Shown here piece after piece: positions 39,170-61,925 of a stretch of DNA of 64,000 nucleotides. The DNA is from Rhizophagus irregularis (Eukaryota; Glomeromycota; Glomeromycetes; Glomerales; Glomeraceae), in the NCBI RefSeq assembly GCF_026210795.1, contig NC_089446.1, forward strand, positions 3,625,001-3,689,000, read 5' to 3'. Both the position numbers and the translations under genes were made by a program. The notes under the pieces were generated by a model. That model saw only the letters and a list, made by a program, of their open reading frames with translations. It was not told the origin of the DNA and ran no database searches. How positions within the stretch are numbered: position 1 is the first letter of the stretch; each line of letters starts with the position of its first letter.

Positions 39170-40329
39170 TGAATAAAATAAGACGTATGCTATTATAAAT
39201 CGTTATCAAAATTGTAAAAATCGGAATGTGATACACTGTACCAATGCATTGGGTATATTCAAGTAAATAACTCGATGCCAGAAATACATGGGAAATGATT
39301 TGTAGACGCGGTAGGAATACTGTAGCATTATATTGTACATTGAGAAATTATATGCTTTAACAAGTATTATAAATCTGTATATATATGTCTCCAACATTTC
39401 AAATACAATTTATTATATATCTATACACTAATGGTGCTAATGACGTATTATCACATTTGAGATTGGACAATGGGGCATGTGTAAATGCTTCGAGGGAAAA
39501 AGCGGTTTATCCATGCTTTGTATGGTTGATAATTTCATTTCATGATTTAAATACTGCAGATTTTATGTTATGAAATCCCTTGACGTTGTTAAATATCATG
39601 ATTTTTGCGTGCAAAAAAATTATTGCGCGCAAATTAATAAAAGAACTATCACATCCTGACCAATAATATAGTGTCGAGAAGCTATCCTTTAAGCCTCCAT
39701 ACCAGGGAATACAGTATGATATTCATAGACATTCAAAAGTAATATTTCACAAAATGTAACTGTAAAGAAATACTATACAATATTTTTTAAATTTACACAT
39801 ATTTCATTAAATTATTCCCGATATCAAAAAAAAAGAAAAAAAAATATCATAATACGACAACGTAAGTAATAAGTTCGCCACAATACAAAGGTAAATTAGT
39901 AAATTAATAAATTTTGTTCGAATTAGTAATTTAGAATATGCATGCACAAGTGAGCAAAAAATTTAATTAGTTGGAAGTATACAAATCTTAGGCAATTAGC
40001 AAGTTCTTACGCCATATTATTTAATTTAAATTCATTGGAAAAGAATGCGTATGAATAAAATGAAACAATTTCAGTCAAAAACTTGATAATCTCATGTCTA
40101 AAAACTTTATTACTGCATTGTACTCCGTAAACTAAACTTTTTGGTCAAATGAAAAAAAATTATTGAAGATCCATTGTTTAAAACAGACAGCTGATCGGAG
40201 AAATGTCTGATTTCCTCCGAAAAATTTCTATAAAAGAAAAATTATTTATTTTTTTTTTTTAATTAAACGAAATTTTTTTACTTTTCTATTTTTTTCTTAA
40301 AGATAAAAAAAAACAAATTGAGTGTAACC
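39170..40329. other. Intergenic region upstream of the ubiquitin-like/ART gene
   Basis: About 1.16 kb, AT-rich, with short open frames lacking any recognisable domain. T-rich tracts lie immediately before the next gene (40240-40300). No repeats identified. Confidence 0.4.
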
Positions 40330-41352
40330 ATGGCCTCAAAAAATGCGATAATTCTTGCGGCTGCTATGTCAGATGTAACAAATAATAGAGTTATTACTCA
40401 TCACGATTATATAACTCGCAAATTAGGAAATGTCAGATATCAAGAATTGGATACGAACGCTCTTCATCAATCTCATTTAGTCGGTGGTCCAGTTCCAAAT
40501 AATATTCAAAATTTAAATATTCAACAACCAAATCCCACAATTAACAACAACAACAACAACAACAATAACAATAATAATGGTGAAATTACCTTATCAATTA
40601 AACCTTTGAGTGGGAAAGCTTTTAAAATAAGAGTTAATCCTACAGATACAATTTATCAAGTCAAACAAAAAATTCAAGATGAACAAGGAATTCTTCCTGA
40701 AGTTCAACGTCTTTTATTTCAAGGGAACCAATTAGAGAATGGTAGAAGTTTAACCAGTTGTGAAATTCAAGATAATACGGAAATATTTTTGGTTTTGAGA
40801 CAAAGAGGAGGAGATGAAATTTATTTTATTCATTCAGATCATCTTGACCCTCAATATGATTGTGACTTTACTACTATACGTGATGTAGGTAAAACCTTTA
40901 TGAGAGGTCCATTCGAATATAAACGACCTTGTGGATGGAATCGTATCGCATTGAATGTACTTAATAAATATGGTGAAAATGTTTGGCTTGGAGTTGGTGG
41001 AATTAGAAATAGTGGTACAGCTTCTTGTCAAAATGAATGGCCTGTATCTTATCATGGTACTTCTCGTCATAATAATAATACAATCGCTGATGAAGGATTT
41101 AATTATGCAAGAAATAGAAATTTTAATTTTACTCATGGAATTTATTCTACCCCTGATGTTAATGTTGCTCTTAAATATGCAACAAGATTCGTTCATGAAG
41201 GTAATAATTATGCCGTTATATTTCAAAATCGTGTAAATCCTGTTAATTTAGAAAGAATTACTAATCAAGAAACTGGTGGTGCCGGTGAATATTGGATTTC
41301 TCGTAATGGTGGTGATGTTAGATCTTATGGAATTTGTATTAAAAAAATTTAA
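40330..41352 (+). CDS. Ubiquitin-like domain fused to ART/PARP-like domain
   Basis: Intronless, 340 codons. The start is the ATG at 40330 in a good context (ACCATGG). Residues 1-70 are unremarkable; an Asn tract encoded by AAC/AAT follows at about 72-83. Residues 86-161 are a clear ubiquitin-like domain: ITLSIKPLSGKAFKIRV, VKQKIQDEQG, QRLLFQGNQLENGRSL, LVLRQRGG. Aligned to ubiquitin, Lys6, 11, 27 and 29 are kept while Lys33, 48 and 63 are Glu, Asn and Asp. Leu8, Leu44 (for Ile) and Val70 keep the hydrophobic patch, and the C-terminal RGG (159-161) is exact. The remainder (162-340) has EWPVSYHGTS (His242), THGIYSTPDVNVALKYA (Tyr272) and GAGEYWISRNGG (Glu320), in the order and spacing of the H-Y-E triad of PARP-like ADP-ribosyltransferases. 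Inferred role: ADP-ribosylation linked to ubiquitin, or release after RGG by a deubiquitinase. Activity is not proven. Confidence 0.8.
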   Translation: MASKNAIILAAAMSDVTNNRVITHHDYITRKLGNVRYQELDTNALHQSHLVGGPVPNNIQNLNIQQPNPTINNNNNNNNNNNNGEITLSIKPLSGKAFKIRVNPTDTIYQVKQKIQDEQGILPEVQRLLFQGNQLENGRSLTSCEIQDNTEIFLVLRQRGGDEIYFIHSDHLDPQYDCDFTTIRDVGKTFMRGPFEYKRPCGWNRIALNVLNKYGENVWLGVGGIRNSGTASCQNEWPVSYHGTSRHNNNTIADEGFNYARNRNFNFTHGIYSTPDVNVALKYATRFVHEGNNYAVIFQNRVNPVNLERITNQETGGAGEYWISRNGGDVRSYGICIKKI

Positions 41353-43858: not shown

Positions 43859-45253
43859 ATGTCTTTACAAAAATTATTATTAAAAAATTTAAAAGTTCAT
43901 CCCCTCTTTTTTTATAAACTCAAACCAAGTTCAATTCCTGTTGACCGCCGCTATTATTTTAATCCTATCTGTAATGGGATTAACAGAAATGAATGTGTAT
44001 ATTTCAATTCCGTAGAAACTCGATCAAATCACTGGTCTCCCAACGATGTGTGTAATTTTCTCAAAAAAGAATTAAAAGAAAAGTGGACACCTGATTTAAA
44101 AGATATCATTTTAAGTCAAAGAATAAGCGGTAAAGATTTAAAATCTTTAAATATAGAAAGACTAGAGTCATTGAATTTCCCGACAATGACGTTTTTCAAC
44201 ATTATCGATATTATTAAAAATTTAAATTGTAAGTTTATTTTTTTGGTTCACTTTATAATCTGGTAATTTTTTTATACTGACCAACCATTCTTTGTTTTTA
44301 AAAGCAAAAACTATTTTTATACAGGATTATGGTGAAGATGGAAATTTATTAGAAACATTTAAAAAAATAGTATTCCATAGCGATACCGAAATTCAAGACT
44401 TCTTAAATTTGGTACAAGGAAAAGGTTTCGTGGAAATTATCGATGCTAAAGGCAAGAAATTACCAATCGAGGAAAAGCCACCATCAATTGTTAATATAGA
44501 AATGCAAGATAACTTGTGATTACTTAACAAAAAACAAAAGTTTTCCGCCCCCGTTACTAGTAATGATTCACCTAAAAAAGAGAAAATTAAGGAACGAGGT
44601 GATGTTTCTAATTTGGCCTGTAATTTACAAAGTATAGAAAATTTTAAACATTATAGAATTGAGTTCCATTTTATTTCAAAGATCAAATATGAATCAACAT
44701 GGACCGAAACAGAAGACAAAGCCATGAAAGAAGAAACTTTATTAGCAATAATGGAAGCTCTCAATAAATATGAATCAGTACCTATCAAAATTTATCCTAA
44801 AAATATCATTAAGGATCAGCTTCAAACCCCGATCATGGGATAGGATAAAATCTTAATTGCCGGAGAAAGGATGTATTTGGTTGAAGCCGAACATAATATA
44901 ACACTTGTAAGTATCAATTCACAATCATCTCTCTTTTGAATATTTGAATAAGCTAACTAATTATTTCCTATTCTCGCATTCTTTAGGAAAACATCAATAA
45001 CCTCTCAGACGAAATAAAAGAATTCAAAAAATTGAAAAAGAATGATGTAAGTAGCGAATATCATGAATTATTGGATAAACTAATGATAGAAGGCATTATC
45101 TGTGGGGTTAATTTTCCAAAAGAATTTCGAAAAATGGCAAAGGATAGAGGTTTATACCCGGGCGGCGGAAGATACAAGGTTAGAATCCCTTATGATCTAA
45201 ATCTCTTAAATTTCTCTGAAAATCATGTCGAAATTTCTTTAAAAATTAATTGA
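43859..45253 (+). pseudogene. SAM-domain/nuclease-like gene, copy 1, two nonsense codons
   Basis: Exons 43859-44228, 44305-44906 and 44987-45253 join in frame to 413 codons. Codon 195 is TGA (44517) and codon 303 is TAG (44841). The sister copy at 52960 has CGA and TGG there. Domains in order: basic N-terminus with no acidic residue before position 29 (MSLQKLLLKNLKVHPLFF), possibly a mitochondrial presequence; a SAM domain (WSPNDVCNFLKKELKEKW to IIDIIKNL); the KTIFIQDY module (GKGFVEI); a charged linker; and a C-terminal domain with GWDKILI then LVEAEHN and YPGGGRYKV. The equivalent of the nuclease motif E-x-K reads E-A-E, so the catalytic lysine is missing here. Nine bases present in copy 2 before PGGG are absent. 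Both stop mutations are G:C to A:T. Confidence 0.8.
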
Positions 45254-45308
45254 AAAATAGCCTTTTGGTCTTAAACAAATTCTTTTTCTTTTAAATTTAT
45301 ATAAACTA

Positions 45309-45610
45309 GAGATATTCTCATAATCTCGATAGTTTGGGACTTTTCAAACATAGTATTACTGTACATCACACGACCAATAAATTATATTTTTTTGTGATGA
45401 TTATTCCTACTTTTTACCCGTCTTGCATAGTGTATCTACCGGGATATTAAATTTCCTGTCTCACAGATGAGGAATGATATGATCCTGATAGTATACATAT
45501 TATCGTATCTTTATAAGTGAGCAAGTCCGTAACACAAAATCGTAAATGGTAAGGCAACCAGCGTACGATGTTTATTATAACAAACGCTGTTAAGCAATTG
45601 CGATCGATTA
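45309..45610. other. Short spacer after the SAM pseudogene
   Basis: About 300 bp of AT-rich DNA. No gene recognised. Confidence 0.4.
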
Positions 45611-46081
45611 CAGTCGGCGGCTCGGCGCTCGGTATAACGAAGTAGGCGTCCGGGCCGATCAGGCCTTCGTTATAAGTAAATTCGTTAATGCTATAACGGA
45701 TTATTCGGTATAGCGGAAAAATTTGGTATAATACAATAAAATATAGGGAAATCAATACATTTGTAAAACGTCATGATCATGAAAGGAAAAGGAAACTTTT
45801 GAAACATAAACCACCCATCTTTTGATAAATGAATCAAAAGTGGTAAAATTGCTTATTTAAAAAAAATTTCATAAAACCAACATCAAATTGCCTTTTATAT
45901 TAAAATTTATCTTGCAAAATACTAAGAAATTCGGGTCATTTACATATAAATTTTTCTTCGTTCAACGTTATACTGCATTTTATTAGTAAAATTCGGTGTA
46001 ATAAATTTTTTTTCATATGATTAAATGCGTACCAAACTAAGGATTCGTTATATCAAAATTCGCTATAGAAATGGCTGACTG
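45611..46081. mobile_element. pogo-like MITE, 471 bp
   Basis: TA on both sides (45609-45610 and 46082-46083). Ends are CAGTCGGCGGCTC on the left and, read inward on the right, CAGTCAGCCATTTC. Both ends then carry ATAACGAA words. CAG ends with TA duplication fit the pogo/Tigger branch of Tc1-mariner. No transposase. Confidence 0.6.
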
Positions 46082-47641
46082 TACATGTAATTAATGCAAT
46101 ACCTGATACTGTAAATAAGACTAAAATAATATACATATATATAAATAAAACTGTTTTAAGAATAATAATAATGAATAAAATATTATACCGTATAGTGAGA
46201 AGGTGAGAGAGAGAGTGAAGGAGAATTTCACACTTGTTTTGTTTCAGGTTTTCAGCCGTAAACAATTTGCGTAAAAAAATAACAAAAAAAAAGAAAATAC
46301 TATTGAGGCTAAATTCAAAAAATAAGATTTACTACAAAGTGATTTGTTTGATAAAAATAAATATAATTAATGTATAGAACTTTTTTTTCGAAAAAAACTC
46401 GGGTATAAAAAATTACAGTTTACAATAAATGTGACTCTCAATACAATTTCTTTTATTGTTATTACAATAATCCTCTTTTTGAAAATTATTTTCAATGATA
46501 AATATGAATGAAGTGTGCGTGTATATATATTTTATCCGCACAATTTATTTTTGAATTGTTTCGTCCATTTTTTGGGGGAGTTTTAGAATACCATCTTTAT
46601 GTAACCTTCTTAAAATGAATAATAGGTCTTTTTGTACGTACTACAATTACAACGATAAAATATTTTCCTGATACACTTTTTTTATCGGACTACTCTTCCT
46701 TTCTTTGTTTCTTGTTCTATTGTAGAAACAATAGAAAAAATGATGATTGTTAAATGTTTCGCATATACAAATCAAAATTAGACGTGCTCAACAAAAGAAT
46801 TCGGTTTAATAACCATTAAAAGCTTCATTATAGTTTGATTCTAGTTTGAGTGGTCGACCGATAGGGATATTATTATATTATTTTTTTTTCGATACAGTAT
46901 ATGATCAATTCCGCAACTCTGCGAAAAACAATTTGTGGCTTTGAGAAAGAAGGTTAGAACTTGAAATAAATAAATAAATAAACAAACAAACAAACAAACA
47001 AATACTAATAAAGAATTTTTTGATAATTTTTACTGCCTAAAAAGGAGATTCATTTAATTAGTGTGTGTCTCTGTAATAATTTAATTAATAGACTAATTGA
47101 TTAAACCAGAAAATAATATTTCGTACATTGTCAGTTCTATTTATAAATTAGCCAGGAATATAAATATGTTAATCTCATTAAGGACATTGATAAAATATTG
47201 CGTTACTAAACAATGAATTTTGAAAGTAAGAAGATGCTTGCATTCCTTATGCGTTAAGCACAAGGAAAATTATGTAACGTTTGAAAGGCATCAAAATAAT
47301 GATAATTATATAATTTATCTTTCATTTTTCAAAATTAATTTATTACCAGTTTACTTTAATTGGCTGTGCGTATCATTTGCATTTTACATAATTTAGTTTG
47401 CTAAGAACAATGTTGTATACATCATGTCGTATTGTAAGGTATTTCTTTCTTTTGATAATTGCTCTTCCGTGTAGACAAACGCATTTTGTCAATGACATTA
47501 AACCAATTTAAGTAGAATTGAAAGATTCTTTCGTTTTAATTTTATTAATTTGAACTCAATTGCTCTTGTATTTTATTTAATTTGAAGAAATAATACATTT
47601 ATATACTCTATAAGCTATAAGCTAATAATATAATTAAGATA
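46082..47641. other. Intergenic region with a small microsatellite
   Basis: AT-rich. It includes a GAGA run at 46200-46215 and an AAAT then AAAC microsatellite at about 46965-47003. No gene seen. Confidence 0.5.
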
Positions 47642-48103
47642 TTAAGATATGATAAAAAGTAGAATGTTATATATTATTGGGGAGTACATGTAGAACCAAC
47701 ACCTGCGCATAATCCATCTATCACAACATACTTTACCACAGCAATTTTGTGCACCACCTGTGCATGGCTTACCATCAAGAATACAAGTAGGTGGTGGTGT
47801 AACACATGCAAATTTTGTATGCGTACAAGTGGCAGTTTTTGTACAATGGCCATCATCATCACCATCACCATCACCATGACCATGACCATGACCATGACCG
47901 TGGCCCCTTTTATCACGCTTAAGTTTAAGAGTGGGAGTGGCTTTGCAGGTTGAAGAGGTTTTAGTGATCGTTGTTGTTGTAGTGGTAGTTGTAGTTTTAC
48001 ATTTACCATGGTTACCATGGGCATCAACAATAATAGTCAATGCCAAAAATGCTAACAGGTAGAAAAGAATAATCGAAGAAAGTTTAAGAGACTTTTTATT
48101 CAT
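47642..48103 (-). CDS. Small secreted Cys-rich protein with His-Gly repeats
   Basis: 153 codons, intronless as read. The N-terminus has a basic start and a hydrophobic core (SSIILFYLLAFLALTIIVDA), a good signal peptide with cleavage likely near residue 28. Then come a Thr tract, a dibasic KR, a repeated His-Gly and Gly-Asp tract (about 69-85, typical of metal binding) and a Cys-rich C-terminus (CVTPPPTC, CILDGKPCTGGAQNCCGKVC). Six to ten Cys suggest disulphide packing. The final part is odd: in this frame it turns to DRWIMRRCWFYMY and a hydrophobic end. The neighbouring frame instead gives DGLCAGVGSTCTPQ and a stop at 47674, which fits the Cys pattern much better. A one-base indel in the last 100 bases is therefore suspected. 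Candidate effector; function unknown. Confidence 0.6.
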   Translation of the reverse strand: MNKKSLKLSSIILFYLLAFLALTIIVDAHGNHGKCKTTTTTTTTTITKTSSTCKATPTLKLKRDKRGHGHGHGHGHGDGDGDDDGHCTKTATCTHTKFACVTPPPTCILDGKPCTGGAQNCCGKVCCDRWIMRRCWFYMYSPIIYNILLFIIS

Positions 48104-48369
48104 TTTTAAAAATTAAATTATCTACGAGTCAAAATGTAAACTTTTAAAATAATACAATGTATTATATCGAACTAAAAGGAATTTCAACAGTTTATCAGTA
48201 TAACTTTTGAACAGAGATTTTACATGGCAATGTGGTGTAATTCAAGCATCTAAAAATAAAATCGATAGAAATAAAATTCAACGAGCAATAAAAACCTTGG
48301 TTCGTTGTTCTTAGAAAAAAGTGAATTCATGATTTGTTAATTTCATATGTTGTGCCTTAAATCTAATTA

Positions 48370-48567
48370 CAGTCAGACCTCTATAATTGCACTCTCCATA
48401 ATTGCACTCACTATGTATACCCTCTCTAAATGCACCCTCTGGTTCGGTCCCAAGCTTATATGATCTCTAATTATTTTACCTCTATAAATGCACACCCTCT
48501 TTAAATGCACTATTTTGAAAATTATGCATATGGTCCCAAGGGGTGTGCAATTATGGAGGTCTGACTG
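48370..48567. mobile_element. pogo-like MITE, 198 bp
   Basis: TA duplication at 48368-48369 and 48568-48569. The terminal inverted repeat starts CAGTCAGACCTC and continues through ATAATTGCAC at both ends, 23 bp with one mismatch. Inner copies of TGCACYCTCT are repeated. It lies about 270 bp upstream of the start of the secreted-protein gene. Confidence 0.8.
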
Positions 48568-49491
48568 TAATATAAAAAAAATACTGTACAAGAAAAAAAT
48601 TTCCTTTTATATACAAAAAGGTTCAATAATATTTTTCCTAAATTAGTTATTTTCAATAAGATGAAACATGATGCATTATTATGCAATTCAAAATTGAAAG
48701 TTTGTTTGTATAGAACTATAGATATACTATATTTTCATATGACGAATATGCAAAATATTATTAGTAAATATTATTCGAGGACGTTCAATAGAGAGAAATA
48801 TAAATAAAAATAAAAAAAAAAATTTAATTAAAATAAATAAATAACAAAAAATTTTCCTTTTATATAGTATTTAATAAGATTTACTAAAATAAATTTCGAT
48901 CACAAGTATGTAGATTGGCTCCTTACTGCTACATGCTCTTATAATATTTTTTTTTCATTTTATGTTACGTTAAAGCACCTCCTTCAGAGACAGAATTTTT
49001 TCAGTGTGCGTGAATCTATTTTCACCAATTATTTGTCACTTATATACGCCAAAATGCCATTTTGTTGGCGATTGGCAAACAATGATATTTTGGTACGAAA
49101 GTCAGATATCGGCTATGCTTCCGGGATTAATTAAAATGAAACTAGAGGATTCGCCGCTACTAGTTTATCTGAAGGTTTTTTTTTTGTTTATATATTCTAT
49201 TTATTTGTTTAACATAAGACATTTTTGCGTAAATTACATGATTAATACATATATACGATAATTAAATCGTAAAGTACTATCTACGTATTTACACAATTCC
49301 CTCCAAGAGGTAGCCGCCTGCTTAATTTTGACTGAGTCAAGAGGACTGGCCCAATGACTATGTTAATCTATCTTGGGTAAAGAAGGGAATAAAAAAGACA
49401 CAAAATAAAAACTAATCTAGGTATTTTTCTTTCATTCCATGGATGCTGCGTGTAAATACTGCCAGATACAGAATGGTTTACAAATTTATTA
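48568..49491. other. Intergenic region, no gene called
   Basis: AT-rich. A stretch at 49004-49190 has protein-like composition in two frames but no recognisable domain. No gene called. Confidence 0.4.
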
Positions 49492-49643
49492 CAGTCGACT
49501 CTCGAAGCACGTGACATTTAACCAATCAAATACGACGTTATAACGAAGAAACCAATCAAATTCTTTAAAATTCTTCGCTATAGCCTTATAACGAATTGAG
49601 GTGAAAACCGGAGGGTTCGTTATCTGATATCGAGAGCCGACTG
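49492..49643. mobile_element. pogo-like MITE, 152 bp
   Basis: Left end CAGTCGACTCTCGA after TA. The right end, read inward, is CAGTCGGCTCTCGATATC, followed outside by CA instead of TA (one base changed). The interior has GTTATAACGAA and CTTATAACGAA in inverted positions. Confidence 0.65.
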
Positions 49644-50065
49644 CATATATATGCTTCCCTGCTATAATCCTAGAGAAGTTTACACTAGTAGACTCTCAAA
49701 CCAAAAAATGTTCAGAAAATGAAAAAAATAGTATGCATGCAAATATAGTAAACAGAACAAAAAAAGATGGGTTCATAAAGCCAAGGAGTACCATACTGAA
49801 TGCATTAAAATTAATTTTAAATTATTTATTATAGTCATTGAATTTTACAAATGTTCCAACTTTGCAACTTTACCGTTATTACAGTAAATAAATGATACAT
49901 GGTCTAAATTCGCAAAAAAATTAGCGACTATGAAGATTCAAAAAAAAATATGATTTGTTGCTAGTTCTTGAATTACAAATGCAAAAATAGAATTAAAAAA
50001 AATTATTTGACAAAATGAAAAAAAAAACTAAAAAATAAAGATATTTATTTTGACAGTATTTTGAC

Positions 50066-50306
50066 AGGACCGGGAAAACAATAAAGGTCACCGGTTTTCT
50101 TGGTTCGAACCCATAATTAATTTTCAAAAAGGTCACCGTAAAAATAATTAATAAAAGTCACGTGTTGGTTCGCAAGAATAAAATTTGAGTGAAGATCTGT
50201 TTTTGGAGCGAAATAAATAGCCAATTGACCAATCATAAGATGGTTCGCATTTATATGATTTTCTGAATTTTTTCCGGTGACCTTTATATATAGTTTTCCC
50301 GGTCCT
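50066..50306. mobile_element. hAT-like MITE, 241 bp
   Basis: Flanked by the 8-bp direct repeat ATTTTGAC (50058-50065 and 50307-50314). Ends are inverted: AGGACCGGGAAAAC, then a short AT spacer, then AAAGGTCACCGG, on both sides. An 8-bp duplication is typical of hAT elements. No coding capacity. It sits 26 bp downstream of the 44-codon secreted-peptide gene. Confidence 0.75.
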
Positions 50307-50332
50307 ATTTTGACCCACACTTAAATAGTGGG

Positions 50333-50467
50333 TTACGCGTCGGTTACGGAATCGGGGTGATCCCAATTGCCACAGCCGCCGCACCTTTTCGTAGCAGGGT
50401 ACGCTTCACCATTATGTACCATGGCAGCAAATAAAATAGCAGCAAATACAAAAATAAATCGGTTCAT
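50333..50467 (-). CDS. Tiny secreted peptide gene, 44 residues
   Basis: Short frame from ATG at 50467 to TAA at 50333. It starts MNRFIFVFAAILFAAM, a compact signal peptide with cleavage likely after HNGEA, then YPATKR with a dibasic Kex2-type site, then CGGCGNWDHPDSVTDA. The short stretch of locally higher GC and the balanced codon use contrast with the AT-rich surroundings and support a real gene. The mature part may be a peptide hormone-like or effector-like product of about 16 residues with two Cys. A possible 5' splice site in the last codons (GTAACC) means the gene could be longer. The hAT-like insertion immediately downstream could have cut off the rest. Confidence 0.5.
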   Translation of the reverse strand: MNRFIFVFAAILFAAMVHNGEAYPATKRCGGCGNWDHPDSVTDA

Positions 50468-50519
50468 AGTGTTTCTGAAGATAATTCGTATTAGAGAGTT
50501 ATTATTTTAGTAATTTTAA

Positions 50520-50860
50520 TCTTATAGTTTTTAGTTTTTTTTCTGTGTTCTTCATGGCCACCACCTTTTTCACCTTTTTTATAATAAAAAAAAATCGTCG
50601 CGTGATTTTTCTTAAACATTTTTTTTCTGTGAATCAGACAAAATCATACGGACTAAACATAAGAAAAAGGCTAATAAAGTTTTCTTATTTCAATCTCATT
50701 TAGTTTTTTTTACAACATTTTTATGTGTCGTATTTGGAACTTAATTTTGATGATCGATGATCCAAAAACGTTTCTAGCTTTTTTTGATCTGATTTTATCC
50801 ATATAATTATGTCGTTTACCACCACCCCCTTTGCTATGATTTAATTAAATTAAATTTAAA
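50520..50860 (-). pseudogene. Gly/Lys/His-rich coding relic
   Basis: The minus strand carries HSKGGGGKRHNYMDKIRSKK followed by a stop, then further on KKGEKGGGHEEHRKKTKN. The two pieces have similar Gly/Lys/His-rich composition, lie in the same direction as the tiny secreted gene and are separated by stops. Weak evidence; listed as a relic. Confidence 0.2.
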
Positions 50861-51007
50861 ATAACCATTTTAAATGGGAATTTCCCATTATAATAATAAC
50901 CAAATAATATTTTACCAAGTGATAGAGATCGCATGTTCGAGTCATATCATGCGCATGATGCATGTGATTTCATGATGCGCATGTGGCATGTGCATAAATA
51001 GAGTTTT

Positions 51008-51345
51008 GGTACGAAAATCATTTGAGCGACTGATACAAGACTGACAACAAAATCTCGACAATCCAATATCTTGACAAGTCAAAATCCCGACAAAATTATA
51101 ACACATTTAAACTAAATATTACATATTGCAAAAATTATTTTATTAGAACACACATCACAAAATTGTCGATATAATGACTTGTCGCATGGGCTCGTTATGA
51201 CGTTGCCAAAAATAAATATGATGATGCAAGGAAGAAACGCTCTGATATTCATAAGATTTTGGATTGCCGAGATTTCGGATTGTCGAGATTTTGTTGTCGA
51301 TCTTGTGTTAGTCGTGCAAGAGATTTTGATCGGATACCCATAAAT
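51008..51345. mobile_element. Foldback element with CTCGACAATCC words
   Basis: Inverted arms of about 80 bp: left at 51008-51095, right at about 51260-51345. The longest perfect match is ACAACAAAATCTCGACAATCC on the left, mirrored on the right. Repeated words TCTCGACAATCC, CCCGACAAAA and TTGACAA occur inside each arm. The outer ends GGTACGAAAATC are close to those of the foldback element at 32624 (GTACAAAAT). No coding capacity. Confidence 0.65.
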
Positions 51346-51810
51346 AGTTATTATAATTATTGTAAAAACGCGCACAAATTATTTGATTATATTTCATCAT
51401 GTGCATGATAAATCACATTTTGCCCATCTCTAGTACAAATTAATGCTACATTTTTCTTATTAAAAGATTATTTATGGGTTTAGGGCAAATTATTCGAAAT
51501 TGCGCATTTTAAATTGTTCTAATCGAATATTAATCTCATGTCATCAAATGAAATTTTGTACCATCGCGACTTGTGATTTGGAATATCGTATTTTCCCTAA
51601 TTACATCATACATATTTTTTGTACAATTTCGACGCTAGAAGGATTTGAAATATGAAATCCTTAAATTTGATTTATATTAGTCATTAAATATGCTGATTCT
51701 TAAAAGATAAATAGATCTAGATCTTACAAACTTGTTACTATATAAAATTGGGCAAATACAAAAAAACATTAATTAAACAAATACCTTATCGCTAGTTATC
51801 ATAATAAATA

Positions 51811-51915
51811 TAAACCGGTTGTACAATTCGGTTCCAACCGGTTTTGTAAAAATTGGTTTTAAACGAGTCAAACCGTTTTAAATTCGGTTTCCAAAAATCC
51901 AACCGGTTCCAAACT
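51811..51915. repeat. AACCGGTT-rich palindromic patch
   Basis: Short region with AACCGGTT three times and CGGTTCC or AACCGTTTT in between, in both orientations. Similar in style to the CGGTT-rich element at 36445. It is followed by two copies of CTAGGGTAGTT. Confidence 0.4.
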
Positions 51916-52040
51916 CTAGTCATATTTCTAGGGTAGTTCTAGGGTAGTTCCAGGCGCTGGCGAGTTTCCATAAATCACGAGATGATCGGCTAATCAGAAA
52001 AAAAAAGCTAAGCCACCATTAATATTCTTATATTGATATG

Positions 52041-54385
52041 AGGGGTTAAATATCACGTGTCGGGTAATTTCATTATAAAGCGATTGTAATATTGTATAGT
52101 AATATACAATTATGGGATGTTGATTTTTTTTTTATTTTTATTTTTATTTTAATTTTATTAGCACATAATTTTTTTTTTAGTTGAGAGAATCCAAAAATAA
52201 AAATTTATAAATATAGTTTTTAAAATTATTTTTAAACCTATGTTTAGCCGTGAATACAATGCAGCATTGGTTAATAATTGTGAATTTGTGGCTGCAAGCA
52301 TAATTATTAAATTTTAATATCGTGTGAAATTATGATGTTATAATTAAACTTTAATAAACTTACATTACTTATATTAAACTTATAAATTAAACTTACTTTA
52401 TTATTAATACTTCAAATAAAGTTTATCGTAATAATAGCTCAATTATAAATCAAACATCACGATAATTGATTAAAATTATAAGCCTTGCCTTTAAAAATCA
52501 TGCAATTGGATTGTTTTTATTATTAAAGATGTTTCAACTAACTATTATTTGGTTAATTATTTTCTAGATTATTATTAATTCTATTAGTAATGCTTAAATT
52601 TTAAATCATTTGAACTGATGTTTGTGGTTCCGTTGTTATTATTGACGCGAGTTATTGTTATCAGTTTTTTTACAATTTAGGTTCATTATTTGATCTAAAT
52701 TATTAATAATTCGAAATAGATTATTAGTAATGTTCCATGGCGCGAGTTATTGTATCAGTTTTTTTACTATTTAGGTTCATTATTTATTAATAATTCGAAA
52801 TAAATTATTAATAATGCTTAAATTTTAAAATGTTGTGGTTCCGTGACGCGAATTATCGTATCAATTTTTTACAAATATTATAATGAATCAGTTTCTATAA
52901 ATTAATCAATAAATCATTTAATCATCTACAAATTTTTTCACTTATTTCAAAAAGCTAAAATGTCTTTACAAAGATTATTATTATTAAAAAATTTAAAAGT
53001 TCGTCCCCCTTTTTTTTATAAATTCAAACCAAGTTCAATTCCTATTGACCGCCGCTATTATTTTAATCCTACCTGTAATGGGATTAACAGAAAGGAATGT
53101 GTATGTTTCAATTCCGTAGAAACTCGATCAAATCACTGGTCTCCCAACGATGTGTGTAATTTTCTCCAAAAAGAATTAAAAGAAAAGTGGACACCTGTCA
53201 AAGAATAAGCGGTAAAGATTTAAAATCTTTAGACATAGAAAGACTTAAATCATTGAATTTCCCGAAAATGACGTTTTTCAACATTATCGATATTATCAAA
53301 ATTTTAAATTGTAAGTTTATTTTTTTGGTTCACTTTATAATCTGGTAATTTTTTTATACTGACCAACCATTCTTTGTTTTTAAAAGCAAAAACTATTTTT
53401 ATACAGGATTATGGTGAAGATGGAAATTTATTAGAAACATTTAAAAGAATAATATTCCATAGCGATACCGAAATTCAAGACTTCTTAAATTTGGTACAAG
53501 GAAAAGGTTTCGTGGAAATTATCAATGCTAAAAGCAAGAAATTACCAATCGGTGAAAAGCCACCATCAATTGTTAATATAGAAATGCAAGATAACTTGCG
53601 ATTACTTAACAAAAAACAAAAGTTTTCCGCCCCCGTTACTAGTAATGATTCACCTAAAAAAGAGAAAATTAAGGAACGAGGTGATGTTTCTAATTTGGCC
53701 TGTAATTTACAAAGTATAGAAAATTTTAAACATTATAGAATTGAGTTCCATTTTATTTCGAAGATCAAATATGAATCAACATGGACCGAAGTAGAAGACA
53801 AAGCAATGAAAGAAGAAACTTTATTAGCAATAATGGAAGCTCTCAATAAATATGAAACAGTACCTATCAAAATTTATCCTAAAAATATCATTAAGGATCA
53901 GCTTCAAACCCCGATCATGGGATGGGATAAAATCTTAATTGCCGGAGAAAGGATGTATTTGGTTGAAGCCGAACATAATATAACACTTGTAAGTATCAAT
54001 TCACAATCATCTCTCTTTTGAATATTTGAATAAGCTAACTAATTATTTCCTATTCTCGCATTCTTTAGGAAAACATCAATAACTTCGCAGACGAAATAAA
54101 AGAATTTAAAAAATTGAAAAAGAATGATGTAAGTAGCGAATATCATGAATTATTGGATAAACTAATGATAGAAGGCATTATCTGTGGGGTTAATTTTCCA
54201 GAAGAATTTCGAAAAATGGCAAAGGATAGAGGTTTATTTAGTGTATACCCGGGCGGCGGAAGATATAAGGTCAGAATTCCTTATGACCTAAATCTCTCAA
54301 ATTTTGAAAAATGTCGAAATTTCTTTAAAAATTAATTGAAAAATAGCCTTTTTGGTCTTAGACAAAATTTTTTTCTTTTAAATTT
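52041..54385. repeat. Segmental duplication, copy 2
   Basis: Second copy of the 2.35-kb block at 42938-45308, in direct orientation. It includes the three upstream units (cores at about 52625, 52735 and 52835) and the whole gene. Small indels separate the two copies. Confidence 0.85.
52960..54335 (+). pseudogene. SAM-domain/nuclease-like gene, copy 2, 22-bp deletion
   Basis: Exons 52960-53310, 53387-53988 and 54069-54335 have the same borders as copy 1. Exon 1 is 351 bases against 370: it has 3 extra bases (one Leu codon) and lacks 22 bases after WTP, at about 53195. The loss shifts the frame in the middle of the SAM domain and causes a stop at once. Exons 2 and 3 are open throughout, without the two stops of copy 1. 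The C-terminal part reads GWDKILI, LVEAEHNITL and LFSVYPGGGRYKVRIPY, again with E-A-E in place of E-x-K. The two sister genes therefore carry lesions at different places. A later start or alternative splicing could still give a C-terminal fragment. Confidence 0.8.
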
Positions 54386-55934
54386 ATATATAAAATAATT
54401 GTTTATGTTTAATATGTGTAATTATTTAATTTTACCATATACGTACTGGAATAATAATAAATCATCGTATAAAAATATACTGATTAAAAAACAAATATGT
54501 GAATCTATGCATAAATGAATATCTTGAAAATCAAATTCATTTGCCACATTTTATTATTTCTTTTCAACTTTAAAAATGAGTTAACCAAAATATCGTATTT
54601 CCCCATTGTTAAGAACGCCAATTATGCTGCATTATGCCGATTTTGACCAGCATTGTGGTCCGACCATTAAAAAAAGAGATGCTTAATAATTCTATACTTT
54701 GATAAATGATAATACTGATATTATAGCCTTTACCTTTTTTATAGTGACTTGTAACCAGCACTTAAAAAAAATCTATACTTAAATACTGGATTAACCTAGT
54801 TTTAGTTTAAATATGATATGTATTTTTATAATAAAGTTGACTAATAGCATCTGACATCTCTTTCGCTGTAAAAAAAAAAATTTTTTTTTTCTTTTGAAAA
54901 TGGAAAAATATTTCCGATTAAAGTAGGATCAATAATCAATAATACGAAATCGGAATACGAAGTCGGAGATAAGATTTGATTAACAATAATACGCTACATC
55001 AACAAATTACGATAATTTGCACCAATTTATTTTTAATTTCAATTATTTCTTTTAATTTTAGAAAATGAATTAACCAAAACGATAGAAAACAAAACCATTT
55101 CTGTATTTAATAATACTAATATTAATACTAATATTATATATCCCTTAAATTTTTTCACTTGAATACAAAGAATTTTTCAATCAATCACGTAAAAGAAGGA
55201 TTTTGGCAAAAATCGGATGTACATATTTTTTTTTCTTAATAAAAACATATGCAAAAAAAAATATTTCTGATTAATAATTACTCCTGTTTTTGTTGCCGTT
55301 ATCTTATTATTATATTCTCATTTAAAAAAATTTGTTTACGTCATTTACATCAAAAATTATCATTTTTGGATTTAGTAATAATTATTATTATAATATCGTG
55401 TCACAAATATTGGGTATTGCGTCACTTATTTCTTATTTCTTTTTCAACGTCAAAGCACGTTAAAAGAGCTCAGCTGGCTTATATTAACCGCGCATTATAA
55501 GAAAAAAAAATGGAATTACAACCCATCTTTTTAAACATGTAAAGAAGGATTTTAATCAAAAAAAAAATCATCTTTTACGATAAAACGGAGATTAAAGGAG
55601 TATCTCTTTTTCAAATTTTTTAAGTTTTAACCAAAATCAAATCATTTCTGCACTTTAATAATACTAATAATATACATATATCCCTTAAATACATACAAAT
55701 AAAAAATAATGGGCGAAATAAATAGAACATTATTATTTTCTCCTGAATTGTTGTAATTTTTATTGGTTAAATTTTATCTAATTTGCGACGATTCACATTA
55801 TTATCATACATTATTGTATTTTTTGCAATCTTTTTTTTTCAATATCACAAGTTGGTTTTTTTTCTTACAAAAAGGCAATGTGATCGCGAATTTTTTCATA
55901 AACTTCTCGTGAAAAAAAATTTTGCAATCAGAAA
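54386..55934. other. Intergenic region upstream of the intact SAM/nuclease gene
   Basis: About 1.5 kb of AT-rich DNA. TTTCTGTATTTAATAATACTAATATTA near 55096 and TTTCTGCACTTTAATAATACTAATAATA near 55649 are two degenerate direct copies, each followed by ATATATCCCTTAAAT. No gene recognised. Confidence 0.4.
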
Positions 55935-57446
55935 ATGTCGTTACTTGCATCTATTCGATCTATTCGACAACTTCAGTCACGTCAATCTTCTCGATTTTTT
56001 AGATCGACTACTATGTGCCTAAAAACATATAAGAAGGCATCTGATCCCTCTGAATTGTCGTCTGAAAGAATTGTCGAACGTTTAGGAACCTACCTGAGAC
56101 AATATCATCATCGTGAAGAAGATTGGAACACTCAGTCATCGAACATCATTAATGTCATTCAGAATAAACTCACTAAGAACGACCTGTTAAATATAGATGA
56201 TAAGGAATTCCAACATAAAGGAATTATATCACAATATGTTTTGAAAGCAGCCAAAGAGTTAAATGGTAAGTTACCAAAATTCTTGAGTGATTGTAATTAA
56301 TTGTTTATTAAAATTATGACTATAACTCAATAATATTATTTAAATTTAACAGAAGATAATTCTATAAATGAAACGGAAATGCCCTTCCATACCAAAATTG
56401 ATGATTTGAATGTTAAAACCTGGACACCAAAAGAAGTTAAACAATTTTTGAAAGAAAAATTAAGTAGTATGTGGACTGCAAAAGAAGAAAATTTTTTTGA
56501 CAAATTTCAAATTAATGGACAAGATTTGTTAAATTTGAGAAGTGATACCACACGACCATTAGGTTTGGCTCGCACGTTCGATAGTGAATTACAAAAATTA
56601 GTAAAACCTCTCAATGGTAAATTACAAACATTAAAACATTTTCCTAAATGAATAAAGTTGTTTTTACAGTTTGAGATAACATTATTTTTTTTTTTTATAT
56701 AATTTCATTAGCAAAAACGATTTATATTAAATCTTTTGACAAATCATTTGTAAAACATATTATACATAACAATAACGATCTAAGAAATCTTTTAAGAAAA
56801 TTTTATGGAAAAGGTTTAGAACCTATTAAAGAAGATGCTGGAAACTATTGCGAATATCCGACTTTAATAAGATCGTTTCAAGGAATTAGAAATAATGAAT
56901 TTTACCGAGTTGATCTTTCGGAATTTTTCCTTCGAAATAAGTTTTCGGAGAGAGTAAATTGGAAACAGATCGAAGACAAAGTAACAGAAGATGAATCATT
57001 TTCTGCTGTAAGAAATGAAATCCAGATACCAACTTTACTATATGATCGAATAATTACGGATGCTAGTGGGATAACAAAAATAGAATGGGATGGCACTTTT
57101 TATGATCATAAGAGATTATTTTTGTGCGAAGCTAAGCATAATATGTCAGAAGTAAGAATTTTTATTTTAAAATCATTTTGTAAATTACTGAATGAATGAT
57201 TTTTGCTTATTAGCTTTGCATTCTTAGAAACATTTGACTAATCTTGTTAAAAGAGTAAAAAAATTTCAAAAAGGCGATTACGATGATCATATCACGTCCA
57301 AGGTTAAAGGGAAAACGTGTATTGGTGTCGCATGCGGTACCTATTTTTCACAAGAAGAACAATCTTTAGCGGACAAAAAGAAATTAATAAGCGTTTTTCC
57401 TGGTGGAGGCAGATATAGAGTAGACTTTCCGTTCCGTGGCAGATAG
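55935..57446 (+). CDS. SAM-domain protein with PD-(D/E)XK-like C-terminus (intact)
   Basis: Four exons (55935-56265, 56353-56616, 56712-57151, 57228-57446) give 417 residues. The N-terminus MSLLASIRSIRQLQSRQSSR then FFRST is basic and Ser-rich, with no acidic residue before position 37: a strong mitochondrial-presequence pattern. Exon 1 continues with a helical region (residues 38-110). Exon 2 carries a SAM domain (WTPKEVKQFLKEKLSSMW to LQKLVKPL), usually a protein-protein interaction domain. Exon 3 starts with the KTIYI module (GKGLEPI, ending FYRVDL) and continues to KIEWDGTFYDHKRLFLCEAKHN. There the D...E-A-K spacing matches PD-(D/E)XK nucleases with the catalytic lysine present. The last exon ends with VFPGGGRYRVDF. 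Inferred: a mitochondrial or secreted nuclease-like effector. The genuine function is unknown. Confidence 0.75.
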
Positions 57447-57843
57447 GCTTTCCGTAGTCAATATTTGCAAAAAAAATATATTTCTGTAAATTGTTTTTTG
57501 CATATATAAATTTCAAATAAAATTTCAAATTTTTAACAGTTAGTATAACCAAATTTTAAACTATTTTAGTAACTATTTCAAAGAGCAATTTACATAAAGA
57601 AATTTAATTTTGATTACTATTTAATAAATTATTAATATATTATCGGCTTAAATATAAATTTGTTTTATTAGTAAAATTGTTGCTTTACAATGTTTTAGAT
57701 AAACTATTCAATAATTCAAAGAGGAAATATTATGTAGAATCAATCAAATAATATATATACTGTACAATGTACATGGTGAATCAATTTATTTCATGTGATA
57801 ATTTCTAAATATAATCAAAGATCGTGAACCGTTAATCAATTAC

Positions 57844-59217
57844 ATGAGAAAATTTTTTACTTGTCTTGTAAATATGACTTCAAAAAAGATTTTATGTAAA
57901 AATCTTTATCAAACTCTCTCATATCCACAAAATTTATATTCCTCATCCCTTTTGAATTATTTTTTACGGAATGGTATTTCCAACAAATTTCTAACATTTA
58001 AAAGAACATTATCTATTACAAAAAAAATTGGCTTGATTATCTCTTCTCAAATTTTAAAAATTACATCACCTTATTTAAAATTTAATAAAAAACCTCAAAT
58101 TAAAAATCCTTATTATTTTCAAGTTAAGAACTGGACATCAGAAGAAGTTAATCAATTTTTGAAGGAAAGAATGGGTGATAATTGGACTACAGAATTAAAG
58201 GAGTTTTTTGAAAAGCATAAAGTTACTGGAAGTGAACTTTTTATGCTAAATAACTATAGTAGATTTTCTGAATTATATGCTAAAGAAATTGGAATTACAT
58301 ATAATCTTAGGAAAATTATCAGCCAACTTTATAGTAAGTTTTAGTAATTTCTTATTTATTATAATTTTAAATTATTATATAACTGATTTATATTTTCTTT
58401 TAATAGCAAAGACAATATATATTCAAGATTATTTTAGTAATGATTATATTCAAACAGATATACATGATGATTTGGAATTTTTTGAATTTTTAAAAAAGCT
58501 AAAGGAAAAGGATTTGTATCTATTAATGATAATAATAAAATTCCAGAACATATTATATCTTTAAAAGATCTTCAACATAATCAATACTATTATATTATTA
58601 AAGATTGTTATTCACAAAAAGAATTAGATAAATATATATATCCACACCATACTTTAATCCATTCAAATAAAAAAATTAAGGAATTTAAATACTGGTCATC
58701 AGAAGAGGTTATTGAATTTTTAAAAAAGGAATTTGGTAATCATTGGACTACAAAAGTGGAATATTATTTTAAAAATATGAAATTTACTGGAAATCATCTA
58801 TCAAAATTAAATTTAAATAACATATTAAATTATGATAAAATATTTAATAGATTTTTACCAATTATGACTAGTATTAAATTTCAAGAAATTATTTGCCAGT
58901 TACAAGGTAATTATTATAATTTCTTACAATAACTTTTATATTTACTTTATATAACTAATTTATTTATTTTTAAAGCAAAAACAATATATATTCAAGATTA
59001 TAATTATGAAGGTGAAATAAAAGATAAGTTTTATAAATTGAAAATATATAATAATGAACATTTTAAAGATTATTTATATTTATTATGTAAAAGATATATA
59101 TTAAAACCTATTAATTATAAAAAAAAATTGGTTGAATTTGGATCTTTTAGAAAACTTTGTAATAATCGATATTATCGAATTGTTTTAAAAAAAAATTTTT
59201 TTTTAAAAAAATTTTAA
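57844..59217 (+). pseudogene. Double-SAM family gene, copy A, single-base frameshift
   Basis: Exons 57844-58333 (490 b), 58407-58906 (500 b) and 58976-59217. The exon-intron plan is the same as in the intact gene at 60565, whose exon 2 has 513 bases. The 13-base difference is a 12-base in-frame loss plus one missing A in an A-run near 58495. That missing base shifts the frame and ends the protein early. Restoring the frame would give: a basic N-terminus without any acidic residue before position 100 (FKRTLSITKK is presequence-like), SAM 1 (WTSEEVNQFLKERM), the KTIYIQDY module, SAM 2 (WSSEEVIEFLKKEF) and a second KTIYIQDY module. No nuclease motif is present. A sequencing error in the homopolymer is an alternative explanation. 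Confidence 0.7.
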
Positions 59218-59489
59218 AATAATTGAATTACTAATAAAAGTTTTAATAATAATATTTTACATTTATATCTAACTTTATATTTATATAATTAATTATATAT
59301 TATTACTACTTTTTATTTTTTTTAATTATTTTTTTAAAAAAGAAAATTAGCCAATTTTGAAAACCTTTTTTTTAATTTATAATTAATATTAAACTTTATA
59401 AAATAAAAAAATTTTCATTCAAATCAGATTACTAAATACTAAGATAATTGCAAAAACAATAAGTTTTATATTAAATGTTCAAGATTCTA

Positions 59490-60260
59490 TTGAATTATAA
59501 AAATTAGTAAAACTTTTTAATAATAAATTACAAATATTTTTTTTAAATAAATAAAATTATTTGTTTTTATAATTTAAGATTATATTATTATTTTTTCTTA
59601 TATATATGCAAAAATGGTTAATATTAAACTTTTTAACAAATTATTTGTAAAATATATTATATATAATAATAATAATCTTAGAAATCTTTTAAAAGAATAG
59701 ATTTAAAACCTATTAAAAAAGATGCTAAAAATTATTGCAAATATCTGACTTTAATAAGATTATTTTAAGAAATTAAAAATAATGAATTTTATTAAATTGA
59801 CCTTTCAGAATTTATCTTTTAAAATAAGTTTTTAGAAAAAACAAATTGAAACTAACTTAAAAAAAAAGTAATAAAAAATAAAATATTTTCTACTGTAAGA
59901 AATAAAATCCTAATTAAATTATATGATTAAATAATTACAGATGCTAGTGAAATAACAAAAATAGAATAGGATAGCATTTATATAAAGTATTTTTATGTAA
60001 AATTAAGCATGCATAAAATATTAAAAGTAAGAATTTTTATTTTAAATCATTTTGTAAATTATTAGATAAATAATTTTTGCTTATTAGCTTTACATTTTTA
60101 AAGTTATTTACTTAATTTTATTAAAAAAATAAAAAAATTTTAAATTGAAAATAATATGTTTTATAAATATTGCTTTTTGCATATATATATAAATTTCAAA
60201 TAAAAAATTTCAAATTTTTAACAGCCAGTATAATTGATTTTAGTAACTACTCCATTAATT
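59490..60260 (+). pseudogene. Heavily decayed copy of the SAM/nuclease gene (B')
   Basis: Aligns by eye with 56590-57570: the end of the SAM exon, the intron, the KTIYI exon, the part around the nuclease motif and the 3' flank (TTTCAAATTTTTAACAG). Most of the last exon is deleted. Stops and shifts are numerous. Most differences change G or C in the intact copy to A or T here, for example GAAGATGAATC reading as AAAAATAAAAT. It lies between copies A and A', so the order repeats as B-A-B'-A'. Confidence 0.7.
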
Positions 60261-60564
60261 TGATTACTATTTAATAAATTAATATTATATTATCAGTTTA
60301 AATATAAATTTATTTTATATGATAAAATTTTATGTATTACAAGAAGTATATTAATCATTCAAATAATATAATATATTGTATGTCAGATGATGTCAATCTA
60401 CATTATCAACTCAATATTATAATGCCTTAAATGGATTGGCTAGTATTACTAGCATAACATATATATGTTGAAATAATGAATAATTATACATCAATTCATT
60501 TCATGTGATAATTTCTAAATATAATTGAGGATCGTGAACCGTTAATCGTCATATAAGCAATTGC

Positions 60565-61925
60565 ATGAGAAAATTTTTTTCTACTTATCTTATAAATATG
60601 ACTTCAAAAAAAATTTTATATAAAAATCTTTATCGACCTCTCTTATATCCACAAACTTTATATTCTTCATCTCTTTTGGATTATTTTTCATGGAATGGTA
60701 TTTCCAACAAATTTCTAATGTCTAAAAGAACATTATCTATTACAAAAAAAATTGGCTTGATTATTTCTTCTCAAATTTTAAAAATTACATCACCTTATTT
60801 AAAATTTAACAAAAAACCTCAAATTAAAAATCCTTATTATTTTCAAGTTAAGAACTGGACATCAGAAGAAGTTAACCAATTTTTGAAGGAAAGAATGGGT
60901 GATGATTGGACTACAGAATTAAAGAAGTTTTTGGAAAAGCATAAAGTTACTGGAAGTGAACTTTTTATGCTAAATAACTATATGTTTTCTAATTTTTATG
61001 TTGAAGAACTCAAAATTACATATAATCTTTATAACATTATCAGACAACTTTATAGTAAGTTTTAATAATTTCTTATTTTATTTTATTATAATTTAAATTA
61101 TTATATAACTGATTTATATCATTTTTTAATAGCAAAAACAATATATATTCAAGATTATTTTAGTAATGATTTTTTTCAAACAGATATACAAGATGATTTG
61201 GAATTTCGTCTATTTTTAAGAAAAGCTAAAGGAAAAGGATTTGTATCTATTAATGATAATAATAAAATTCCAGAGCATATTATATCTTTAAAAGATCTTC
61301 AACATAATCAATACTATTATATTATTAAAGATTGTTATTCACAAAAAGAAAGAAAGAAATATATATATCCACATCATACTTTAATCCATTCAAATAAAAA
61401 ATCTGATTTTCAAATTAAGGAATTTAAATACTGGTCATCAGAAGAGGTTATTGAATTTTTAAAAAAGGAATTTGATAATTATTGGACTACAAAAGTGGAA
61501 TATTATTTTAAAAATATGAAATTTACTGGAAATCATTTATTAAAATTAAATTTAAATAACAAAATAAATCATGATAAAATATATAATAGATTTTTACCAA
61601 TTATGACTAATCTAAAATTTCAAGAAATTATTCGACAGTTACAAGGTAATTATAATAATTTCTTATAATAACTTTATATTTACTTTATATAACTAATTTA
61701 TTTATTTTTAAAGCAAAAACCATATATATTCAAGATTATAATTATGAAGGTGAAATAAAAGATAAATTTTATAAATCGAAAATATATAATAATGAACATT
61801 TTAAAAAATATATATATTCTTTATGTAATAAATCTACATTAAAACCTATTAATTATAAAAAAAAATTGGTTGGATTTAAATCTTTTAACAAACTTCGTAA
61901 TAATCAATATTATCGAATTGTTTAA
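60565..61925 (+). CDS. Double-SAM, double-KTIY-module protein (intact, copy A')
   Basis: Exons 60565-61054, 61133-61645 and 61714-61925 give 404 residues with no stop. Both introns are phase 1. The N-terminus is basic with one Asp before position 100; MSKRTLSITKK near residue 50 resembles a mitochondrial cleavage region. SAM 1 (WTSEEVNQFLKERM to IIRQLY) ends exon 1. Exon 2 begins with KTIYIQDY, continues through KAKGKGFVSI and YYYIIKD, and ends with SAM 2 (WSSEEVIEFLKKEF to IIRQLQ). Exon 3 is a second KTIYIQDY module ending YYRIV. There is no nuclease motif. The pairing of module and SAM inside one symmetric 1-1 exon suggests the second pair arose by exon duplication. Function unknown; SAM pairs often mediate polymer or adaptor assembly. 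Confidence 0.75.

What the first reader, a model, noticed from the sequence alone, without database searches (positions are those of the whole stretch)
43859..61925. Unnamed multigene family: presequence-like N-terminus + SAM + KTIYIQDY module, with or without an E-x-K nuclease motif
Seen: five gene-size copies in one direction plus relics. All begin with basic, acid-poor N-termini, have SAM domains, and share a module of about 75 residues (KTIYIQDY ... FL..GKGF..I ... YYRI) I cannot name. One subtype (B) ends in D..E-A-K and PGGGRY; the 43859/52960 pair has E-A-E; the other subtype (A) has two SAM+module pairs and no nuclease motif. Known: nuclease-type effectors of the CRN class and SAM expansions occur in these fungi. 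Inferred: an effector- or conflict-type system acting in mitochondria, with catalytic and non-catalytic (adaptor or antidote?) partners encoded side by side.
Basis: partly seen in the sequence, partly recalled or inferred. Interest (0 to 1): 0.88.

Follow-up and report, generated by a model that had tools for sequence, protein, structure and literature searches.

The report
SAM–ubiquitin-like–nuclease gene cluster, mycorrhizal fungus
A small gene cluster in a fungus that lives with plant roots encodes one intact predicted DNA- or RNA-cutting protein with a mitochondria-like address tag and a protein-assembly domain, next to sister proteins that lack the cutting part; what they do is open but can now be tested.

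Summary
Five gene-size copies lie in one direction on a Rhizophagus irregularis contig, but only two are intact in the window: B3 (55935-57446) and A2 (60565-61925). All five start with an acid-poor basic stretch and have SAM and the KTIYIQDY module. The cluster continues past the window; a B-A unit occurs four times, with B dead in three.

The module looks ubiquitin-like (beta-grasp), nearest doublecortin-type domains. The C-terminus looks like a PD-(D/E)XK nuclease (D325, E338, K340), nearest EndoMS/NucS; its first helix and strand are modelled poorly. Both C copies have lost the catalytic Lys and their frames.

Module plus nuclease also occurs without SAM at dispersed loci; at three, N-terminal pieces match Crinkler best, below the cut-off. 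So the CRN link is suggestive, and the SAM/presequence form may be re-headed. Relatives exist in R. clarus, Diversispora and Gigaspora.

Best reading: a SAM-assembled nuclease, probably mitochondrial, with nuclease-less A partners. The mitochondrial address rests on charge, not on amphipathicity. A as partner or antidote is untested, and two of three A pairs diverge nearly neutrally. New variant of a known kind.

The parts
43859..45253 (+). C1: presequence-like N-terminus + SAM (43859-44228), module + first nuclease half (44305-44906), last exon 44987-45253; two in-frame stops (44517, 44841), catalytic Lys replaced (E-A-E)
52960..54335 (+). C2: close copy of C1 (89.8% DNA identity over 2.4 kb with flanks); frame shifted by a short deletion in the SAM exon; E-A-E
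55935..56265 (+). B3 exon 1: presequence-like N-terminus (first acidic residue is 37) and a stretch predicted helical at low confidence
56353..56616 (+). B3 exon 2: SAM domain (residues about 128-199), phase 1 introns on both sides
56712..57151 (+). B3 exon 3: KTIYIQDY module (56714-56914, residues 200-266) and first half of the nuclease: conserved E286 (56972-56974), D325 (57089-57091), E338 (57128-57130), K340 (57134-57136)
57228..57446 (+). B3 exon 4: second half of the nuclease with FPGGGRY
57844..59217 (+). A1: presequence-like + SAM, module + SAM, module; frameshift in exon 2; no nuclease
59488..60144 (+). B-type relic (module to nuclease) between A1 and A2; 99 of 127 substitutions against B3 are C-to-T or G-to-A
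60565..61054 (+). A2 exon 1: presequence-like N-terminus and first SAM
61133..61645 (+). A2 exon 2: first module and second SAM (phase 1 introns on both sides)
61714..61925 (+). A2 exon 3: second module, ends ...YYRIV stop

Best explanation
The cluster encodes (B) a nuclease built as presequence - SAM - ubiquitin-like module - PD-(D/E)XK domain, and (A) nuclease-less relatives with two SAM + module pairs. Most likely B is a metal-dependent nuclease that is imported into the fungus's own mitochondria, gathers into assemblies through its SAM domain (perhaps with the module as a second contact surface) and cuts nucleic acid there; A proteins share the address and the assembly domains and so can co-assemble with B and tune or hold it. 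The module-nuclease half belongs with CRN-like loci dispersed in the same genome, and was combined with SAM and a new N-terminus. Shown by computation: domain order, fold assignments at moderate confidence, conserved catalytic residues, dispersed SAM-less relatives, B-A unit duplication. Inferred: mitochondrial location, assembly, A-B interaction, substrate, re-heading.
Confidence: 0.42

Rival explanations
1. A CRN-like effector branch: the proteins leave the fungus and the nuclease acts in plant cells (nucleus or plant mitochondria), with the SAM and basic N-terminus serving in place of a CRN header.
For: Same module and nuclease pieces follow weak Crinkler-type N-terminal matches at three dispersed loci; at least 150 Crinkler places over cut-off in this genome (capped list); R. 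irregularis CRNs carry REase domains in print (PMC6131194, passages).
Against: No Crinkler match on B3, A2 or C1 exon 1; no strong hydrophobic core in the first 40 residues of the six SAM-bearing proteins (highest mean hydropathy over 12 residues 0.37-1.17); the nuclease profile finds nothing in the 18 Crinkler loci L015-L032 fetched, out of at least 150.
Confidence: 0.2
2. A toxin-antidote or selfish pair: B is a nuclease toxin and A its SAM-module antidote, kept together as a duplicating unit.
For: B-A unit in four copies, with B dead in three and A intact in two (A2, and A3 past the window); same-length contig for A and B in R. clarus.
Against: No test of toxicity or neutralisation. The only intact B lies beside the broken A1; near-neutral divergence in two of three A pairs. 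Diversispora has a B-type protein; whether it has an A was not searched apart.
Confidence: 0.15
3. A mitochondrial DNA repair or degradation enzyme (EndoMS-like work), with A as by-products of tandem duplication.
For: Nearest nuclease folds are EndoMS/NucS; relatives in R. clarus and Diversispora with SAM, and in Gigaspora without SAM in the model as annotated.
Against: Fold likeness shows no function; divergent family (47% identity between two Rhizophagus species).
Confidence: 0.18
4. A family on its way out: tandem duplicates decaying with no present role.
For: C1, C2, A1 and three B units broken; dN/dS near 1 for two of three A pairs.
Against: B3 intact, its 90% cluster holding 6 deposited sequences, A2's likewise 6; catalytic residues kept in B3, R. 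clarus, G. rosea and D. eburnea; A1-A3 dN/dS 0.28, Fisher p 0.007.
Confidence: 0.15

Closest known systems
CRN (Crinkler) proteins with REase C-termini (e.g. RiCRN1, put with CR-REase 5 in PMC6131194)
   Same: Modular; ubiquitin-like domain ahead of a PD-(D/E)XK nuclease; same genome; dispersed relatives with weak Crinkler-type N-termini
   Different: No Crinkler match in the cluster's genes; SAM and a presequence-like N-terminus instead; the nuclease profile does not pick up the 18 Crinkler loci fetched
EndoMS/NucS endonuclease
   Different: No sequence match found; no SAM or presequence there (recalled)
Doublecortin and other ubiquitin-like (beta-grasp) domains
   Same: Predicted fold of the KTIYIQDY module
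   Different: No Pfam match of that kind; binding partners untested
SAM-scaffolded enzymes such as SARM1 and SAMHD1
   Same: SAM joined to an enzyme domain; their SAM folds are among the matches
   Different: Different enzymes and domain order; assembly here is not shown

Membership tests
PD-(D/E)XK nuclease superfamily | alpha-beta-beta-beta-alpha-beta core | tested here: met
PD-(D/E)XK nuclease superfamily | Catalytic D and E-x-K on the central strands | tested here: met
   D325, E338, K340 on strands 320-329 and 333-342; E-x-K in 8 of 10 sequences examined, lost in C1 and C2
PD-(D/E)XK nuclease superfamily | Nuclease activity | not testable with these tools
   bench assay needed
CRN/Crinkler proteins | Crinkler N-terminal header (PF20147) on the protein itself | tested here: not met
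   No Crinkler match for B3, A2 or C1 exon 1
CRN/Crinkler proteins | C-terminal domains shared with header-bearing relatives | tested here: inconclusive
   5 of 12 N-terminal pieces, from 3 of 5 dispersed loci, have Crinkler as best Pfam match, E 0.002-0.015, under the cut-off; a profile from 19 own-genome headers sees, of the dispersed loci, only the C13 one, E 0.0056
SAM domain proteins | SAM sequence or fold | tested here: met
Mitochondrial presequence proteins | Basic, acid-free N-terminus | tested here: met
   exact rank test p 0.002 for 6 against 5 related proteins; P0012 was left out and does not fit as annotated
Mitochondrial presequence proteins | Amphipathic helix | tested here: inconclusive
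   Not above shuffles in any of 11 N-termini
Mitochondrial presequence proteins | Import in vivo or a trained predictor (TargetP, MitoFates) | not testable with these tools
   not available
Doublecortin/ubiquitin-like fold | beta-grasp topology | tested here: met
Toxin-antidote pair | Toxic member and neutralising partner | not testable with these tools
   only linkage seen

The most novel reading that the evidence does not exclude
A two-part mitochondrial conflict or quality-control system of arbuscular mycorrhizal fungi: a CRN-lineage nuclease re-addressed from effector duty to the fungus's own mitochondria by gaining a presequence and SAM, held in check by nuclease-less SAM-module partners, possibly policing mitochondrial genomes when hyphae of different strains fuse.
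Probability: 0.12. Interest if true: 0.88.

Novelty: new variant of a known kind. Interest (0 to 1): 0.55.

Why it matters
If the mitochondrial reading holds, it would show an effector-type nuclease module turned to an organelle of its own cell, with a non-catalytic partner family beside it. AM fungi fuse hyphae and can come to hold mixed mitochondria, and how they sort them is open (recalled). The predicted folds and catalytic residues make direct tests possible now.

Tried and rejected
Profile search of nuclease and module against sequences of solved structures: best rows E 1 and 0.029, taken as chance. NCBIfam and PADLOC with four proteins (P0001, P0002, P0003, P0014): PADLOC none, NCBIfam two rows at E 0.18 and 0.22 far below their cut-offs. 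NERD in Pfam appears at E 0.058-0.07 for three relatives (L004, L008, P0014) over the nuclease region, under cut-off; not for P0001. Metallo-beta-lactamases in the Foldseek list: set aside, because the PD-(D/E)XK rows come first and score higher on realignment. Module against own-genome Crinkler headers by hhalign: no match, so the module is not shown to be a header copy. Tree of eight module-nuclease exons: B3 and R. clarus apart from the other six (100/99); the rest unresolved, so whether SAM was joined once or twice is open. Papers: no paper holds Rhizophagus irregularis + SAM domain + crinkler, Rhizophagus + sterile alpha motif + expansion, crinkler + restriction endonuclease + SAM domain, or any of six locus tags of this family; one paper, on a fungal SAMHD1, holds arbuscular mycorrhizal + SAM domain + mitochondrial + nuclease (listing only). 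Other listings seen. Zhang et al. 2016 is not held and is known here only through passages of PMC6131194 and PMC5289972. PMC10234402 and PMC8647823: passages only.

Full report
What is there. The window is 64 kb of one 4.29 Mb contig (C18) of a 146.7 Mb, 32-contig genome; B3 and A2 are identical or nearly so to deposited Rhizophagus irregularis proteins. Between 43.9 and 61.9 kb lie five gene-size copies on the + strand. I call them C1, C2, B3, A1 and A2 in order. B3 and A2 are intact; C1 has two stops, C2 a frame-shifting deletion, A1 a frameshift. The cluster runs on past the window: A3 at C18:3693115-3694477 is open in all three exons, and an A relic follows.

Unit structure. DNA comparison shows that C1 and C2 are copies of each other (89.8% over 2.4 kb), and that B plus A form a unit present four times: B3-A1, relic-A2, relic-A3, relic-A4 relic. 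The A1 and A3 stretches are 97% identical, A1 and A2 84%. B is intact in one of four units, A in two of four. In R. clarus the B relative (P0002) and an A relative (P0012) each come from one contig of the same length, 226390 bases, so probably from the same contig.

Gene build. The intron before each module is in phase 1 in B3, A2 (both) and C1, and so is the intron before the SAM exon of B3; the intron inside the nuclease, just after E-x-K/E-H, is in phase 0 in B3 and C1, and a GT follows the same residues at four dispersed loci (C4, C13, C17, C18:1656950). The SAM exon of B3 and the module-SAM exon of A2 are symmetric 1-1 exons, which could be duplicated without breaking frame. A is best seen as a nuclease-less form with SAM and module doubled (inference).

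Catalytic residues. D325, E338 and K340, with a conserved E286 ahead. E-x-K is present in 8 of the 10 sequences in which I looked at this stretch: B3, R. clarus, G. rosea, D. eburnea, C4, C13, C17 and C18:1656950; C1 and C2 have E-A-E. C10 and the B relics were not counted.

Family range. Protein searches gave 3, 11 and 15 hits, overlapping; those with an organism name are R. irregularis, R. clarus, R. diaphanus, Diversispora eburnea and Gigaspora rosea, all Glomeromycotina. D. eburnea P0014 has N-terminus, SAM, module and nuclease; G. rosea P0003 has two modules (the first cut by its start) and nuclease. In the own genome eight dispersed places carry module pieces (C4, C13 twice, C17, C10, C18 twice, C32); only C4 has the module-nuclease frames open, by eye. 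SAM searched with one sequence is found in the C18 cluster (9 of 10 matches) and at one weak place elsewhere (C27, E 0.0098).

CRN link. Twelve N-terminal pieces from five dispersed loci were scanned. Five pieces, from C17, C10 and C13, have Crinkler (PF20147) as best Pfam family, best E 0.0034, 0.0022 and 0.014, below cut-off; the other seven do not, among them all from C4 and C18:1656950. C17 and C10 look like close copies, so this is about two independent signs. A profile from 19 own-genome Crinkler headers sees, of these loci, only the C13 one (E 0.0056). The nuclease profile finds nothing in the 18 Crinkler loci L015-L032, out of at least 150. Passages in PMC6131194 and PMC5289972 report REase domains in R. 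irregularis CRNs and a ubiquitin-like header; the parts list is alike, but membership is not shown.

N-termini. First acidic residue: 37, 58, 33, 57, 39, 29 in B3, R. clarus B, D. eburnea, the unnamed P0013, A2 and C1; 11, 11, 5, 12, 4 in SAM-less C4, C13, C17, C18:1656950 and G. rosea (exact p 0.002; sequences related, starts of the SAM-less ones guessed, the G. rosea model probably cut). By each protein's own composition the acid-free start has P 0.005, 7e-5, 0.007, 5e-4, 0.026 and 0.056. Left out: P0012 (R. clarus A; acid at 11 as annotated), the other strain copies and near copies (A1, A3, C2, P0005-P0011, P0015-P0018) and C10. Amphipathicity is not above shuffles in any of the 11 (lowest p 0.144). 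So an import signal is plausible, not shown.

Selection. dN/dS: A1-A2 0.85 (p 0.54), A2-A3 0.92 (p 0.76), A1-A3 0.28 (p 0.007), C1-C2 0.73 (p 0.61). Power is low. Constraint on A is thus doubtful; for B only protein comparison between species was possible.

Verdict. Observation confirmed. New variant of a known kind.

Noticed in passing
59488-60144 and L003:3119-3683: B relics differ from B3 by C-to-T or G-to-A in 99 of 127 and 92 of 114 substitutions, in all contexts, while only 25 of 479 and 21 of 412 A/T sites changed (C/G transitions to transversions 99:3 against 23:7 in C1-C2, Fisher p 0.001). The A4 relic leans the same way (41 of 56), A1-A2 does not (52 of 205). RIP-like or deaminase-like; the two relics differ from each other at only 68 of 554 sites, so this may be one event. 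A passage in PMC8647823 says RIP signs were not detected in Gigaspora margarita.
   Followed up: partly
40327-41352: Open frame with a ubiquitin domain (Pfam E 8.4e-21) followed by a weak PARP match (E 0.028, below cut-off).
   Followed up: no
L014:581-1327 and L031: Crinkler genes whose part after the header may be another beta-grasp type (a guess by eye). The first lies about 3 kb upstream of the C4 module-nuclease locus, and another Crinkler about 3.7 kb upstream of the C13 one.
   Followed up: no
L004, L006, L007 after the N-terminal frame: The stretch after the N-terminal frame is alike in DNA at C4, C17 and C10, by eye, hinting that the C4 N-terminus comes from the same header-bearing lineage.
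   Followed up: no
47642-48112 (minus strand): Short open frame with a hydrophobic start, a His/Gly/Asp-rich repeat and a Cys-rich end, possibly secreted.
   Followed up: no
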